Shown here in pieces: positions 18,250 to 59,165 of a stretch of 64,000 bases of DNA. Under the pieces are notes generated by a model that had not been told where the DNA came from, ran no database searches, and saw only the letters and a program-made list of their open reading frames with translations. This stretch comes from an uncultured Pelagibacteraceae bacterium. Its GTDB lineage: Bacteria > Pseudomonadota > Alphaproteobacteria > Pelagibacterales > Pelagibacteraceae. How positions within the stretch are numbered: position 1 is the stretch's first letter; each line of letters opens with the position of its first letter. The translations under genes and the position numbers were made by a program. The stretch is from assembly GCA_902612605.1 (NCBI GenBank), contig CACMDY010000006.1, positions 1-64,000 on the forward strand, read 5' to 3'.

Positions 18250-18843
18250 ATGACATTTGCATTGCCAAAACTAGATTATACTAATGAGGCTTTGTCTCCA
18301 ATAATGTCACAAGAAACATTAGAATTACATCATGGAAAACATCACCAAACCTACATAACAAATCTTAATAATTTTATAAAAGATACAGACATGGCTGAAA
18401 TGTCATTGGAAGATATAATTATAAAAAGTTCAAAAGATAACTCAAAAGCAGGAATATTTAATAATGCAAGCCAGCATTGGAACCATAATCTTTTTTGGAA
18501 GTGCATGAAGCCAAAAGGTGGTGGGAATATTCCGTCAAAACTTGAGAAAAAAATTATTGAAGATTTTGGAAGTATTGAAAAATTCAAAGATGAATTCAAA
18601 CAAGCAGGTATAACTCAATTTGGATCAGGTTGGTGTTGGTTATCATTAAATAATGATAAATTGGTTGTTACAAAAACAGCTAATGCAGCAAATCCATTAG
18701 TTGACAACATGAAGCCAATACTTGGGTGTGATGTTTGGGAACATTCTTATTATATAGATTACCGAAATAGAAGACCTGAATATTTAGACAAATTTGTTGA
18801 AAATCTTATTGATTGGGAATTTGTTGATTCTCTTTTAGGTTAA
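18250..18843 (+). CDS. sodB: Superoxide dismutase, iron type
   Basis: The enzyme converts superoxide to oxygen and hydrogen peroxide. It is 197 residues with no leader, so it is cytoplasmic. Metal ligands are His27 (LELHHGKHH), the His of WNHNLFW near residue 79, and Asp and His in CDVWEHSYYIDY. The motif NNASQHWNH places the active-site Gln in the N-terminal half, the mark of iron rather than manganese enzymes. The ATG follows an A+T-rich 64-base gap that probably contains its promoter. Confidence 0.95.
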   Translation: MTFALPKLDYTNEALSPIMSQETLELHHGKHHQTYITNLNNFIKDTDMAEMSLEDIIIKSSKDNSKAGIFNNASQHWNHNLFWKCMKPKGGGNIPSKLEKKIIEDFGSIEKFKDEFKQAGITQFGSGWCWLSLNNDKLVVTKTANAANPLVDNMKPILGCDVWEHSYYIDYRNRRPEYLDKFVENLIDWEFVDSLLG

Positions 18844-18859
18844 TTTAAAATAAAAAAAA

Positions 18860-19087
18860 ATGAACAAGTACAATGCCAGTAAACTCTGGAAAATTATTCA
18901 GGAGGCAGGCGACTATTTAAATGGTCAATTGCCTGATCACCCAAATCATCCAAAAGGAAGAAATCCATACGCGCATGTAGCAATATGTGTAAAAAATAAA
19001 TTTAATGCTAGTTACAAAGATATCGAAGATGATAAATTTAATGAAGTATTAAATTTTATCGAAGATATTAAAAACAACCCAAACTAA
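18860..19087 (+). CDS. Conserved-looking 75-residue protein of unknown function
   Basis: I do not recognise a characterised family. The protein is hydrophilic, with an N-terminal helix (KLWKIIQEAGDYLNG) and a striking central segment, LPDHPNHPKGRNPYAHVA, containing three histidines in a proline-rich turn, then a C-terminal acidic helix (DKFNEVLNFIEDIKN). The His/Asp cluster could bind metal, which is inference. It starts 16 bases after sodB with an A-rich leader and is probably co-transcribed with it. Confidence 0.65.
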   Translation: MNKYNASKLWKIIQEAGDYLNGQLPDHPNHPKGRNPYAHVAICVKNKFNASYKDIEDDKFNEVLNFIEDIKNNPN

Positions 19088-19095
19088 TTAATAAA

Positions 19096-19155
19096 GTTAA
19101 TCTAAAAATTGTTTGTATGCTAAATAAGCTAGAACTAATACAGCTACAACTTCCA
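19096..19155 (-). CDS. Tandem membrane microprotein 2 (19 codons)
   Basis: A short frame starting with GTG encodes VEVVAVLVLAYLAYKQFLD (first residue translated as Met). It has an AGGAG ribosome-binding site four bases upstream (complement of 19160-19164). One hydrophobic helix is followed by a charged tail, as in single-pass microproteins. Its first eight codons match the neighbouring upstream frame at protein and DNA level, so the two arose by duplication. It is far below the size at which chance frames can be excluded; the paired structure is the argument. Confidence 0.5.
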
Positions 19156-19165
19156 CATTTCTCCT

Positions 19166-19225
19166 TTTAATTAAAGCTGCCAGTCGCAAATAATATTATT
19201 ATTACTAATACTGCCACAGCTTCCA
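19166..19225 (-). CDS. Tandem membrane microprotein 1 (19 codons)
   Basis: An ATG frame encodes MEAVAVLVIIILFATGSFN, a single hydrophobic helix with one acidic residue at position 2. The leader AAAAGAAGTTA before the ATG gives a weak ribosome-binding site. It is exactly as long as the second copy 10 bases downstream, and both begin (M/V)-E-(A/V)-V-A-V-L-V. It lies 42 bases after the threonine aldolase stop on the same strand and may be its operon tail. Confidence 0.5.
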
Positions 19226-19267
19226 TTAACTTCTTTTATAATTTGAAAGGGTTAATTTCAAGTATAT

Positions 19268-20317
19268 TTAATTGAAAATAGTATTCAAAAACTCATCCAC
19301 TTCACTGTCTTTAGTATTCCAAGCAGTGACTAATCTAACTGTTTTGCCAGTCAATTCATCTTTGCTCATCATATACTCTTCTGAATTAAGATGTTCGACC
19401 ATCTTTTTTGGGAGTTTCACAAAAACTTCGTTTGCTTCTGTCGGATATTCTAGTTTCACTTGATTGCTAGAAACTAAACCATCGCTTAATTTTTTTGCCA
19501 TTAGATTTGCATGTCTTGCGTTTTTTAACCAAACATTATTTGAGATATATCCATCTAATTGTGCAGAAACAAAACGCATTTTAGACAATAGATGACCAGA
19601 TCTTTTTAACAAGAATGGTAAGTTCCCAACTAATTCCTTATTAAATATTATAATTGCTTCGGCTGCTATACATCCGTTCTTCGTTGCTCCAAAAGATAAT
19701 ATGTCAATTCCTGATTTCCATGTCATTTCTGCGGGAGTAACATCTAGTGAAACAAGCGCATTAGCGAACCTAGCACCATCCATATGTACTTTTAATTTTT
19801 TTTTATGTGCGATTTCAGAAATATTTCTAATTTGATCTAAAGTATAAACTTCACCAGTTTCTGTTGCTTGAGTTATACTAACAATAGATGGTTGAGTGTG
19901 ATGCACAATTCCAAACCCTCCAATATTATCATTTAGCTCATCAACTGTTATTTTGCCATCTTTACCGTGCAATGGAACAAGTTTTGCTCCACCTGTATAA
20001 AATTCAGGGGCTCCACACTCATCAACATTAATATGAGAAAATTTGTGGCAATAAATATTTCCAAATGATGGAGATATAGCAGAAAGTGCTAAAGCATTTG
20101 ATGCGGTTCCTGATGCAGTTGGATAAACAATCACATCCTTTTCAAAAATTTTAGAAAATTTTTCTTGTAACACACCTGAAATTTCATCGTTACCATACGG
20201 TGGGGCAATACCATCATTTGCTTTGATAATTGCATCCAAAACTTCTGGACAAGCTCCTGTCACGTTATCTGAAGCAAATTTTACTCTTTTTCGTTTTGTA
20301 TTAATTTTTGCGTTCAT
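19268..20317 (-). CDS. ltaE: Low-specificity L-threonine aldolase
   Basis: This PLP enzyme splits threonine into glycine and acetaldehyde. The 349 residues match the family. The PLP lysine is in SFGATKNGC at about residue 213, and the PLP-contacting segment KVHMDGARFANA precedes it. The N-terminal FASDNVTGACPEVLDAI is the usual opening. It sits one base after the amidinotransferase stop, so the two are co-expressed. Threonine-derived glycine could supply the amidinotransferase and glutathione synthesis, which matters in organisms short of glycine. Confidence 0.9.
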   Translation of the reverse strand: MNAKINTKRKRVKFASDNVTGACPEVLDAIIKANDGIAPPYGNDEISGVLQEKFSKIFEKDVIVYPTASGTASNALALSAISPSFGNIYCHKFSHINVDECGAPEFYTGGAKLVPLHGKDGKITVDELNDNIGGFGIVHHTQPSIVSITQATETGEVYTLDQIRNISEIAHKKKLKVHMDGARFANALVSLDVTPAEMTWKSGIDILSFGATKNGCIAAEAIIIFNKELVGNLPFLLKRSGHLLSKMRFVSAQLDGYISNNVWLKNARHANLMAKKLSDGLVSSNQVKLEYPTEANEVFVKLPKKMVEHLNSEEYMMSKDELTGKTVRLVTAWNTKDSEVDEFLNTIFN

Positions 20318-20318
20318 T

Positions 20319-21434
20319 TTATTGTTTTGGAAAATAATCTTTTAAAGTACCTTCTCTATAAACATCAGCTGTACAACAATGAAGGCCTCCACCAAAAGCA
20401 TATGCATCTCTCAACTCTACAGGGATAACCTCCATACCTAATTTATCTAACTGTTCAGCTTGATATTTTTCACTTTTTTCAACACATACAGTTTTAGGGT
20501 CAAGAACTAAAACATTCATTGATAGCCATACTGAAGAGTAACAAAGTGGTGGTGGGGTATTATGAGCAGGTTGTGCAGCATCAATGATTTCCCATCCATT
20601 ATCTTCAAATAATTTTCTTTGTTCTTTTGGAATTCTTCGTTGTGGATTATTAATAATTAACCCTTCTTTAATTGGGGTAAAGGTTGCATCAATATGAATT
20701 GGATAAGGATCGCCTGGGAAATTTACAGCATGAACTCTATGATCCTTAAAATGTCTTTTTATCCAATCAATTCCTTTTAAGTTAGTTGTAAATCCGTGTT
20801 GTACAACCAAATCCTTTCCAAATCTTAGAATATCTGCGGCATCAAATAATGGTTCTTCCTCAGTTGTGACAAAGTATTTATTTTCTGTCCATTCAAGTCT
20901 TTTAGTTACACCAATTTTATCTGACAAATAGTCTTTTCTATAATCTGCGTCTGTTAATCTAGGCTTTGGTGCTGACTCATGTCTCATATTTGGATCTTTA
21001 TTATAATAGTCTTTTAATAAAGGTCTGTAACATAGGTACTCAAACCATCTGCACCTGTAGCTCATTGTGGCTTCTAATATTTCATTTCCCACAGTTAATA
21101 AAACATCTCTAGGTGGCATGCATCCAAACATAGTTTCAGCTTTCCAGTCAGGAGTTGATGTTGGTTGATTAAAATCTAAAGGTGTTGGTCTATCAACTTT
21201 TATACCTCTTTTTTCAAGCAAATTTGAGAAGTTATCTAATAGTTCATTAGCTTTATCGACAGTGTCCCTAGTTCTTGGACCATAAGTTCCTCGCATATCA
21301 GAGTCCTCTGGAACTTTAGCATCTAAAGCAGGTTCAGGTGCTGGAATACAAGTACCATCTGCTCTTCCAACAATTACATGTTTTAATGGATCCCATTCAT
21401 TCCAACTATTAACAATCTTATTATTTTGAACCAT
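20319..21434 (-). CDS. Glycine amidinotransferase family enzyme (AGAT-like)
   Basis: Relatives move the amidino group of arginine to glycine, yielding guanidinoacetate and ornithine. The 371-residue protein has the AGAT fold signatures: NSWNEWDPLKHVIVGRADG at the start, catalytic Asp in LFDAADILRFGKDL, catalytic His in IHIDATFTPI, and the nucleophile Cys353 in GGGLHCCTADV. The acceptor amine may be glycine or another amine (as in the related inosamine or lysine amidinotransferases), so the exact product is not settled. It lies between ltaE and an EamA transporter on one strand, six bases from the latter. Confidence 0.85.
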   Translation of the reverse strand: MVQNNKIVNSWNEWDPLKHVIVGRADGTCIPAPEPALDAKVPEDSDMRGTYGPRTRDTVDKANELLDNFSNLLEKRGIKVDRPTPLDFNQPTSTPDWKAETMFGCMPPRDVLLTVGNEILEATMSYRCRWFEYLCYRPLLKDYYNKDPNMRHESAPKPRLTDADYRKDYLSDKIGVTKRLEWTENKYFVTTEEEPLFDAADILRFGKDLVVQHGFTTNLKGIDWIKRHFKDHRVHAVNFPGDPYPIHIDATFTPIKEGLIINNPQRRIPKEQRKLFEDNGWEIIDAAQPAHNTPPPLCYSSVWLSMNVLVLDPKTVCVEKSEKYQAEQLDKLGMEVIPVELRDAYAFGGGLHCCTADVYREGTLKDYFPKQ

Positions 21435-21440
21435 GTAAAA

Positions 21441-22346
21441 TTAATTTAATCCAATAAATCTTCTATTAGATTGCATTATCATACTATAATAAAAAATAGC
21501 TAAAAAAATAAAGAAGCCACCAATAATTGTATTAGTTGAAGGAATTTCATTTATTCCAAGCCAAGGAAGCCAAACCCAAAATATTCCTCCTATTACTTCA
21601 GTCAATGATAGTAAAGTCAAATCAGCTGCTGGAATATGTTTTGATCCAATTGAGTAAAGAATTAAACCCATACAAACAAGTGTTCCGTGAGTAGCAAATA
21701 ATGCTTCATTTTTATTTGAAGATAAGAAATTTGCATCATTATTTAAAATCATAACAGTTGAAAATAAAAAACAAAATAAGCCTGCTATAGCAACTGTTGT
21801 AAACTTGGGGGTTTGTTTTCTCCATCTCAGACTTACTGAAAAAATTGAAAAACCTAGTGCAGATACTAATCCAAATATTAGACCCATTAAAGAATTTTCT
21901 TCAGTATTACCGTAGGCCATTACTATTATACCAAATGCAGCAACTAAAATTGATATCCAAACTGTGATTGAAATTTTTTCTTTCAAAAATAGGAAACCAA
22001 GTAGCGCGGTTATAAAAGGCATTGCAGCTAAACATAATAAAGTTACTGCTGCTGTCGTGTTAGTAATTGACCAAATAAAAGTTATCATTGCTGTTCCTAA
22101 ACCAACACCACCTATAATTCCAGATATCCCAATTTTTAAATAATTTTTATAAAATGAAATTCCTTCTTCCAAGAATAAGTAAACATTGAGCAATAAAAAA
22201 ATAACAATACCTCTTGCAAACAAGTATTGCCAAGGGACAGTTTCAGGTTGATCTATATGTCTTACAACATATGGTCCAAATGACCAAAGTATGCCTGCAA
22301 ATAAAACAATTGGAATAGCTACTTTAGGATTTTTTAAATCAGGCAT
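21441..22346 (-). CDS. EamA/DMT-family transporter
   Basis: A 301-residue membrane protein with ten predicted helices in two EamA repeats. The second repeat ends LTLLSLTEVIGGIFWVWLPW with the conserved Glu. It is the first gene of a minus-strand group with the amidinotransferase and threonine aldolase, which suggests transport of glycine, arginine or a guanidino compound; this is context only. It diverges from the NifU-like gene across 47 bases. Confidence 0.83.
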   Translation of the reverse strand: MPDLKNPKVAIPIVLFAGILWSFGPYVVRHIDQPETVPWQYLFARGIVIFLLLNVYLFLEEGISFYKNYLKIGISGIIGGVGLGTAMITFIWSITNTTAAVTLLCLAAMPFITALLGFLFLKEKISITVWISILVAAFGIIVMAYGNTEENSLMGLIFGLVSALGFSIFSVSLRWRKQTPKFTTVAIAGLFCFLFSTVMILNNDANFLSSNKNEALFATHGTLVCMGLILYSIGSKHIPAADLTLLSLTEVIGGIFWVWLPWLGINEIPSTNTIIGGFFIFLAIFYYSMIMQSNRRFIGLN

Positions 22347-36844: not shown

Positions 36845-36985
36845 GCCCCCTCTGTCTTTTTGCCTGAGAGATTTGCTCCTTCGGCGAGAATAATTCTCTT
36901 TCCAGAGTTAATATGTACGGTCCATTTGCCTGAGAGTTTCCGGGGTGGTTGCTCCTTCGGCGCTACAAAAGTAGTCTCTCCCGTA
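36845..36985 (-). ncRNA. Tandem glycine riboswitch
   Basis: Two glycine aptamers lie back to back in the gcvT leader. In each, the conserved GCCGAAGGAGCAA core is followed by CTCTCAGGCAAA. In plus coordinates the cores are at about 36950-36963 (aptamer 1) and 36863-36876 (aptamer 2). Aptamer 1 closes with ACGG/CCGT (36981-36984 with 36917-36920) and aptamer 2 with CTCTG/CAGAG (36903-36907 with 36850-36854). This class activates glycine cleavage genes, and a glycine riboswitch has been described in SAR11. Confidence 0.93.
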
Positions 36986-36991
36986 TAAATT

Positions 36992-37000
36992 CTTATAACA
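36992..37000 (-). promoter_or_regulatory. Extended -10 promoter of gcvTHP
   Basis: On the minus strand TGTTATAAG forms an extended -10 element, seven to eight bases before the first riboswitch stem, so transcription would begin at the aptamer edge. No strong -35 box is seen. Confidence 0.55.
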
Positions 37001-59027: not shown

Positions 59028-59119
59028 GCTTCTCTCCTTTTATAATTAAATTAGGATTATAGACTACTAATGGTTTAAGTTATCCACAATAGCACAAAAT
59101 ATGGTTTTGGATGTTCATG

Positions 59120-59141
59120 TTTTGATTCACTTTTGATTCAC
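59120..59141 (+). repeat. Tandem 11-base repeat between the cupin and umuD genes
   Basis: The unit TTTTGATTCAC occurs twice in direct succession in the 189-base divergent region. It lies about 80 bases before the cupin start and 75 before umuD. A regulator-binding site is possible but unproven. Confidence 0.6.
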
Positions 59142-59165
59142 TTACAGACTCAAAATACAACCTAA

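What the first reader, a model, noticed from the sequence alone, without database searches (positions are those of the whole stretch)
19096..19225. Two tandem, equal-length 19-codon membrane microproteins
Two minus-strand frames, each 60 bases with stop, encode peptides starting (M/V)-E-(A/V)-V-A-V-L-V and having a single hydrophobic helix. The second has an AGGAG site. The matching DNA arms, including ACTAATAC-(a/t)-GC-(t/c)-ACA, show local duplication. Identical length, shared start and clean stops make chance less likely. They sit after an amidinotransferase-threonine aldolase group. Tiny paired membrane peptides of this kind resemble microprotein regulators or type I toxins, but no antitoxin RNA is evident.
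Basis: seen in the sequence. Interest (0 to 1): 0.72.

Follow-up and report, generated by a model that had tools for sequence, protein, structure and literature searches.

The report
Paired 19-residue SAR11 membrane microproteins
Two tiny neighbouring genes, each coding for a 19-residue peptide that should sit in the membrane, look real because selection has kept their peptide sequence in related ocean bacteria; what they do is not yet known.

Summary
Minus-strand ORF A (19226..19167) reads MEAVAVLVIIILFATGSFN and ORF B (19156..19097, GTG) reads (M)EVVAVLVLAYLAYKQFLD, 10 bases apart with AGGAG before B. These are not chance ORFs. Homologues occur in 20 distinct SAR11 genomes, each directly downstream of the same threonine aldolase: 9 with the pair, 9 with one A-like copy, 2 with a divergent copy. 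All intact frames have 19 codons except one of 18. Substitutions favour synonymous sites (pS 0.53, pN 0.15; p 2e-5, or 8e-4 under the harshest mutation bias tried) and third codon positions (33 of 54). Carriers fall in one aldolase clade that also holds 21 loci without the genes. Members tested match nothing in Pfam, NCBIfam, PHROGs or PADLOC. Best reading: duplicated single-helix membrane microproteins, probably modulating a larger membrane protein. A type I toxin is less likely: no antisense signal was found and net charge is -1 in all eight forms tested. Function is inferred, not shown.

The parts
19167..19226 (-). ORF A: 19-codon membrane microprotein MEAVAVLVIIILFATGSFN, ATG start, TAA stop
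   Evidence: homologous frames in relatives; selection test
19097..19156 (-). ORF B: 19-codon membrane microprotein (M)EVVAVLVLAYLAYKQFLD, GTG start here (ATG in the other 8 pair genomes), TAA stop
   Evidence: homologous frames; selection test
19161..19165 (-). AGGAG, Shine-Dalgarno-like site of B in the 10-base gap between A and B
   Evidence: same site in 7 of the 8 pair rows shown, GGGGG in L033
19235..19261 (-). Promoter-like TTGAAA - 15 bases - TATAAA, 8 bases before A's ATG; in L033 TTGAAA-15-TATAAT-8-ATG. Would make A's message nearly leaderless. Suggestive only: a 15-base spacer is short, and another promoter-like site (TTGAAT-16-TATACT) lies at 19288..19261
   Evidence: my own scan; one search scanned spacers of 16-18 only and lists the second site
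19268..20317 (-). threonine aldolase-like PLP enzyme (Beta_elim_lyase), gene directly upstream of A in every carrier found
20319..21434 (-). amidinotransferase-like protein of the same strand (Pfam ADI, E 6e-6)
21441..22346 (-). EamA-family transporter of the same strand, one candidate membrane partner (inference only)
18860..19087 (+). H75: convergent 75-aa gene without a Pfam or NCBIfam match, bounds the microprotein region on the other side

Best explanation
A and B are real protein-coding microgenes: a tandem duplicate pair at the 3' end of an amidinotransferase/threonine-aldolase gene group in one SAR11 clade. Each makes a 19-residue peptide with an invariant acidic second residue and a hydrophobic stretch of about 12 to 16 residues, expected to sit in the inner membrane as a single helix. 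Shown by sequence: homologous frames, nearly constant length, start and (B, singles) ribosome-binding site, purifying selection on the peptide, duplication, absence from close relatives. Inferred: translation from a short message of their own (A near-leaderless, B by its Shine-Dalgarno site), membrane insertion, and function. The mechanism I think most likely is that of other single-helix small membrane proteins: the peptide packs against transmembrane helices of a larger membrane protein or complex and tunes its activity or stability, with A and B as diverged partners or alternatives (their first halves are alike, their C-terminal halves differ). I hold the coding claim at about 0.93; the figure below is for the whole statement with its mechanism.
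For: Homologous frames at the same place in 20 distinct genomes. 19 codons in every intact frame except one 18-codon A. B starts with ATG in 8 of the 9 pair genomes, GTG here. Four gene comparisons: pS 0.53 versus pN 0.15; changes at codon positions 1, 2, 3 are 16, 5, 33; p 1.9e-5 against equal mutation, 8e-6 to 8e-4 under six mutation-bias settings, and 2.6e-4 or 2.9e-4 when one of two comparisons that share a tree branch is dropped. Shine-Dalgarno-like sites before B in 8 of 8 pair rows and before 11 of 11 single copies. Profile hits in whole genomes are well separated: members at E below 1e-5 except one at 0.001, next best hit 0.007. GRAVY 1.3 to 2.2 and side-chain charge -1 in all 8 forms tested. 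In the 17 carrier genomes that were searched whole no further copy was reported. The region is no genomic repeat: one hit in the own genome.
Against: No translation, expression or membrane data. The family is dispensable: absent from 69 of the 80 aldolase loci fetched, 21 of these inside the carrier clade, and found in 10 to 15 of 399 genomes per draw from the genus. Constraint is weaker than on the aldolase (pN/pS 0.10-0.46 versus 0.03-0.09). One genome (L005) has ATT in place of A's ATG. A versus B shows no synonymous excess (dN/dS 1.2 and 2.2). B's hydrophobic stretch is short before K15. No partner is identified; the EamA transporter is 94-99% identical in carriers and 98-99% in clade members without the genes. 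I chose the comparisons after seeing the data, alignments are ungapped, and two of the four share one branch of the aldolase tree. The best 14-residue hydropathy of B (2.1) is lower than that of A (2.9).
Confidence: 0.55

Rival explanations
1. The peptides are type I toxins of the Ibs kind: hydrophobic 19-residue peptides that depolarise the membrane when overproduced, held down by an antisense RNA from the opposite strand.
For: Length 19 and 14-15 hydrophobic residues match the reported IbsC (19 aa; 15 aa with at least 10 hydrophobic residues suffice; PMC8309996, passages). Duplicated loci are known for such toxins (zorO/zorP, abstract start of PMC3919570).
Against: No promoter-like site on the + strand within 19097-19226, neither strand is structured beyond shuffles (z -0.93 and -0.61), no Rfam match here. 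Net charge is -1 in all 8 forms, with Glu2 invariant in the 14 aligned forms. No further copies in the 17 carrier genomes searched whole. Particular residues are conserved, whereas frame-shifted IbsC is reported to stay toxic (PMC7192591, abstract start), so a generic toxin would need less constraint.
Confidence: 0.15
2. The ORFs matter as translated RNA, not as peptides: ribosome transit over the 3' region of the aldolase message shapes termination or collision with the convergent H75 gene.
For: They lie in a very short convergent junction with no terminator-like hairpin; in single-copy genomes of the A kind the microgene stop abuts H75's stop.
Against: Such a role would not select for amino acids; nonsynonymous changes are under-represented and Glu2 and Ala5 are invariant in 14 aligned forms. 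Most relatives without the ORFs keep the same convergent genes.
Confidence: 0.07
3. A and B are remnants of a longer membrane protein gene, or chance ORFs left by recombination next to an insertion hot spot.
For: The region is present or absent between close relatives, and L029's copy is more diverged at synonymous sites than its aldolase predicts (p about 0.003), which suggests recombination. A possible insertion hot spot, the 5' end of H75, lies about 200-350 bases away.
Against: Remnants would not keep 19 codons, start, Shine-Dalgarno site and a synonymous bias over saturated aldolase divergence (L004 to L033, aldolase dS 1.3). No longer homologue appears in Pfam, NCBIfam or PHROGs.
Confidence: 0.05
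4. Leader or attenuator peptides that control a downstream gene.
For: In L032 and L134 a same-strand gene follows the microgene closely; the one scanned (from the L032 genome) is PMT_2-like.
Against: In the window and the other 17 carriers with A-like ORFs the next gene is convergent, so there is nothing downstream to control.
Confidence: 0.03

Closest known systems
Ibs type I toxins (ibs/Sib) of E. coli
   Same: 19 residues, single hydrophobic helix (PMC8309996, passages); several related copies (recalled)
   Different: No antisense RNA signal seen here, net negative charge with invariant Glu2, placed after an enzyme gene, no Pfam match
Single-helix small membrane protein regulators and subunits (AcrZ, KdpF, CydX, MgtS)
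   Same: One hydrophobic helix, non-catalytic; a CydX study reports sequence plasticity (title and abstract start of PMC6005532)
   Different: Those are longer (about 29-49 aa, recalled) and have identified partners (AcrZ with AcrB, CydX with cytochrome bd: abstract starts); here the partner is unknown and the peptide is 19 aa
Catalogued microbial smORFs (GMSC)
   Same: That catalogue predicts ORFs from 30 bases up in metagenomes (PMC11364881, passages), so these ORFs may sit in it unnamed
   Different: I could not query the catalogue; the paper's main text has no occurrence of 'Pelagibac'

Membership tests
Ibs/Sib type I toxin-antitoxin | Hydrophobic peptide of 18-19 residues | tested here: met
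Ibs/Sib type I toxin-antitoxin | Antisense RNA gene on the opposite strand | tested here: inconclusive
   No + strand promoter-like site inside the ORFs, no structure beyond shuffles, no Rfam hit; no RNA data
Ibs/Sib type I toxin-antitoxin | Sequence match to the family profile | tested here: inconclusive
   No Pfam family for four members at E up to 10; HMMER filters are weak at 20 residues, and that Pfam holds an Ibs model is recalled, not checked
Ibs/Sib type I toxin-antitoxin | Toxicity on overproduction | not testable with these tools
   needs expression
Single-helix small membrane protein (functional kind, not a sequence family) | Under 50 residues with one hydrophobic helix-length stretch | tested here: met
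   (18-19 residues, best 14-residue mean hydropathy 2.1-3.0); no transmembrane predictor was run
Single-helix small membrane protein (functional kind, not a sequence family) | Peptide under purifying selection | tested here: met
Single-helix small membrane protein (functional kind, not a sequence family) | Located in the membrane and bound to a partner | not testable with these tools
   needs fractionation and pull-down
Leader peptide / attenuator | Regulated gene downstream on the same strand | tested here: not met
   next gene is convergent in 18 of 20 carriers, the window included; L032 and L134 are the exceptions

The most novel reading that the evidence does not exclude
A and B are a lineage-specific, duplicated pair that works as a two-part membrane unit: A and B assemble through their alike first halves and each contacts a different target through its own C-terminal half, one of the smallest natural protein pairs kept by selection, in one of the most streamlined free-living genomes.
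Probability: 0.15. Interest if true: 0.65.

Novelty: new member of a known kind. Interest (0 to 1): 0.45.

Why it matters
SAR11 genomes shed nearly everything dispensable, so unannotated 19-codon genes that still show purifying selection suggest that gene catalogues of these abundant ocean bacteria miss a functional layer. The family has no name in the four profile libraries tried, and it offers a clean test: some sister lineages keep A and B, some keep one, some have neither, in an otherwise very similar neighbourhood.

Tried and rejected
Whole-region DNA search in 41 genomes found the own copy plus two short chance stretches. The first profile (A1) at E up to 1 brought mostly chance hits; profiles A2 and A3 with tighter cut-offs separated them. 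L113 and L140 (MEVV/MEVI-like 18-codon frames) overlap a NifU-like gene on the other strand and were rejected. A degenerate pattern in IMG/VR gave three contigs; their frames (20 and 17 codons) start like the family because the pattern asks for it, lack a ribosome-binding site and differ in the second half, so I set them aside by eye. Phage searches with DNA gave four short weak matches and with the B peptide none. Class-wide search of 190 genomes gave, besides the own genome, three partial hits at E 0.04-0.1, taken as chance. A terminator or structured RNA found no support. Linking the genes to the EamA transporter by co-occurrence failed. Structure prediction was not run: the peptides are under the 30-residue minimum.

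The conclusion stands with weaker p values.

Full report
What is there. The minus strand of window 19097-19226 holds two ORFs of 19 codons each, A (19226..19167) and B (19156..19097), separated by 10 bases that contain AGGAG. A starts 41 bases after the stop codon of a threonine aldolase-like gene (19268-20317, Pfam Beta_elim_lyase), and B ends 9 bases short of the stop of a convergent 75-residue gene, here called H75 (18860-19087). Upstream on the same strand come an amidinotransferase-like gene and an EamA transporter gene.

Not chance. I fetched the 80 best threonine aldolase loci from genome contigs (580 relatives were found and 80 kept) and read what follows the aldolase. Of these 80, three have the pair (L004, L005 with A's ATG changed to ATT, L033), seven a single A-like ORF (L023, L025, L026, L027, L028, L029, L030), one a divergent single ORF (L032), and 69 none. 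Whole-genome profile searches added more: 10 genomes with a member at E below 1e-5 among 399 of the genus, 15 of 399 in a second draw restricted to at least 70% completeness, and 13 of 397 in a draw from the order, one of these at E 0.001; the draws overlap and include the own genome. The remaining hits (E 0.007 and above) are partial; among their loci the ORF scan found no family-like frame except L113 and L140, which overlap a NifU-like gene on the other strand. A search of 190 genomes across the class gave no member besides the own genome, and phage records gave no convincing match.

Coding evidence. Frames, start context and length are kept: 19 codons in all intact frames apart from an 18-codon A in L033. 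B starts with GTG in the window and with ATG in the other eight pair genomes. The ATT of L005 counts against A being essential there, or is a sequencing error. In L033 a TAA stands right before B's ATG, so the 30-residue TTG reading offered by the ORF list is not the conserved form. I compared A and B of L004 with L033, the single ORFs of L032 with L134, and those of L028 with L029: 27.7 synonymous changes over 52.7 sites and 26.3 nonsynonymous over 172.3 sites; 16, 5 and 33 changes at codon positions 1, 2 and 3. The excess at third positions has p 2.7e-5; the synonymous excess has p 1.9e-5 with equal mutation and between 8e-6 and 8e-4 under six settings of transition and AT bias. Two comparisons share one branch of the tree; dropping either leaves p 2.9e-4 or 2.6e-4, and up to 0.005 under the harshest mutation setting. 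The aldolase of the same genomes is more constrained (pN/pS 0.03-0.09 against 0.10-0.46), so the peptides evolve under moderate purifying selection. The two paralogues compared with each other show no synonymous excess: after the duplication the C-terminal halves went separate ways. Within the window A and B agree at 6 of 7 residues after the start and at 17 of 21 bases there, but at 13 of 36 bases further on.

History. A quick maximum-likelihood DNA tree of 88 aldolase rows puts all carriers into one clade of 40 rows (SH-aLRT 100), which also holds 21 rows without the genes: one group of 20 (98) and L031. L033, with the pair, branches first in this midpoint-rooted tree. The tree needs three changes between having and lacking the genes, two of them forced by well supported branches; it cannot tell gain from loss. 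The simplest account is one gain with an early duplication, then at least two complete losses and loss of one copy in the single-copy lines. The gene order around the locus is largely the same in carriers and in clade members without the genes (L024 and L031 differ on one side). L029's copy differs from L028 at 10 of about 14 synonymous sites while the aldolase differs at 32% (p about 0.003): local recombination is likely.

Expression signals. In the pair genomes A has no good Shine-Dalgarno site, but TTGAAA-15-TATAA(A/T)-8-ATG stands before it in 6 of 8 rows at exactly that spacing, with L108 one base shorter and L085 reading TATACA; L033 keeps these blocks although much of the rest of its leader has diverged. 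A 15-base spacer is short for a sigma-70 promoter, and a second promoter-like site lies at 19288..19261, so this is a lead: A may be made from a near-leaderless message. B and all 11 single copies have a purine-rich Shine-Dalgarno-like site. No promoter-like site on the + strand lies within the ORFs and no terminator-like hairpin was found in 18800-19500; six promoter-like sites were found there against 3.3 expected. RNA folding of either strand is no better than shuffles. Rfam at gathering scores finds a glycine riboswitch and the SAR11_0636 sRNA elsewhere in the window and nothing else.

What it works like. All eight forms tested have side-chain charge -1, 14-15 hydrophobic residues and GRAVY 1.3-2.2. 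Length and hydrophobicity are like those reported for IbsC (passages of PMC8309996), so the peptides could perturb membranes if overproduced. But there is no sign of an antisense partner, and the selection on particular residues, Glu2 and Ala5 invariant in 14 aligned forms, and the placement with ordinary metabolic genes fit a membrane accessory peptide better. Which membrane protein it serves is unknown; the EamA transporter of the same gene group is the obvious first candidate, without co-occurrence evidence. Four members match no profile in Pfam, PHROGs or NCBIfam, and the two window ORFs match none in PADLOC, with the caveat that profile searches are weak at 20 residues. Paper searches combining SAR11 or Pelagibacter with small proteins, sORF, microprotein, small ORFs, microbial smORFs or ribosome profiling (of 482 papers I saw 20) listed none that I could recognise as describing this family; I read passages of two papers and otherwise only listings.

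Verdict. Real, conserved and, as far as I could look, unnamed; of a known general kind; function open. The neighbouring H75 gene led to a separate observation, given under Noticed in passing, that may deserve its own study.

Noticed in passing
window 18878-18916 (5' end of H75, 18860-19087 +); L181-L186: Possible insertion hot spot for gene cassettes in SAR11. A 32-base core from the 5' end of H75 occurs in 47 of 99 genomes of the genus (reversed control pattern: none); in 14 of them two or three copies lie on one contig, same orientation, about 0.8-5.2 kb apart. In the six stretches read, all 9 extra or upstream copies are fragments of about 22 H75 codons ending in TAG, followed by short repeats and other genes; in five of the six a full-length H75 and then the aldolase stand at the end. 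In 81 aligned rows the mean third-position conservation is 0.83 for H75 codons 6-23 and 0.74 for codons 24-75. Genes before H75's start vary among genomes of the other aldolase clade, while in the window's clade it is mostly SOD. Genes seen near H75's start in single loci include a methylase with a restriction enzyme (L046), a methylase (L062), a ResIII helicase (L045), a HEC-05-like protein (L050) and alternative oxidase (L049); L183 and L185 hold type I restriction-like blocks by eye. No integrase was recognised by eye. The window holds one core only. Listings named no such site.
   Followed up: partly
L187 5620-5651: One IMG/VR contig of 9,070 bases carries the H75 core; a cassette carried by a virus or a host fragment in the collection. 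Not read.
   Followed up: no
window 19268-22346 (-): The aldolase / amidinotransferase / EamA transporter group is kept in most loci of both aldolase clades. The best NCBIfam match of the aldolase is GntG-like, far below its cut-off (71 against 230 bits), so its substrate is open.
   Followed up: no
L029 4082-4141: Microgene copy with far more synonymous divergence than its aldolase predicts, pointing to local recombination.
   Followed up: partly
window 36908-36993 (-) and 59072-59162 (-): Glycine riboswitch and SAR11_0636 sRNA by Rfam.
   Followed up: no
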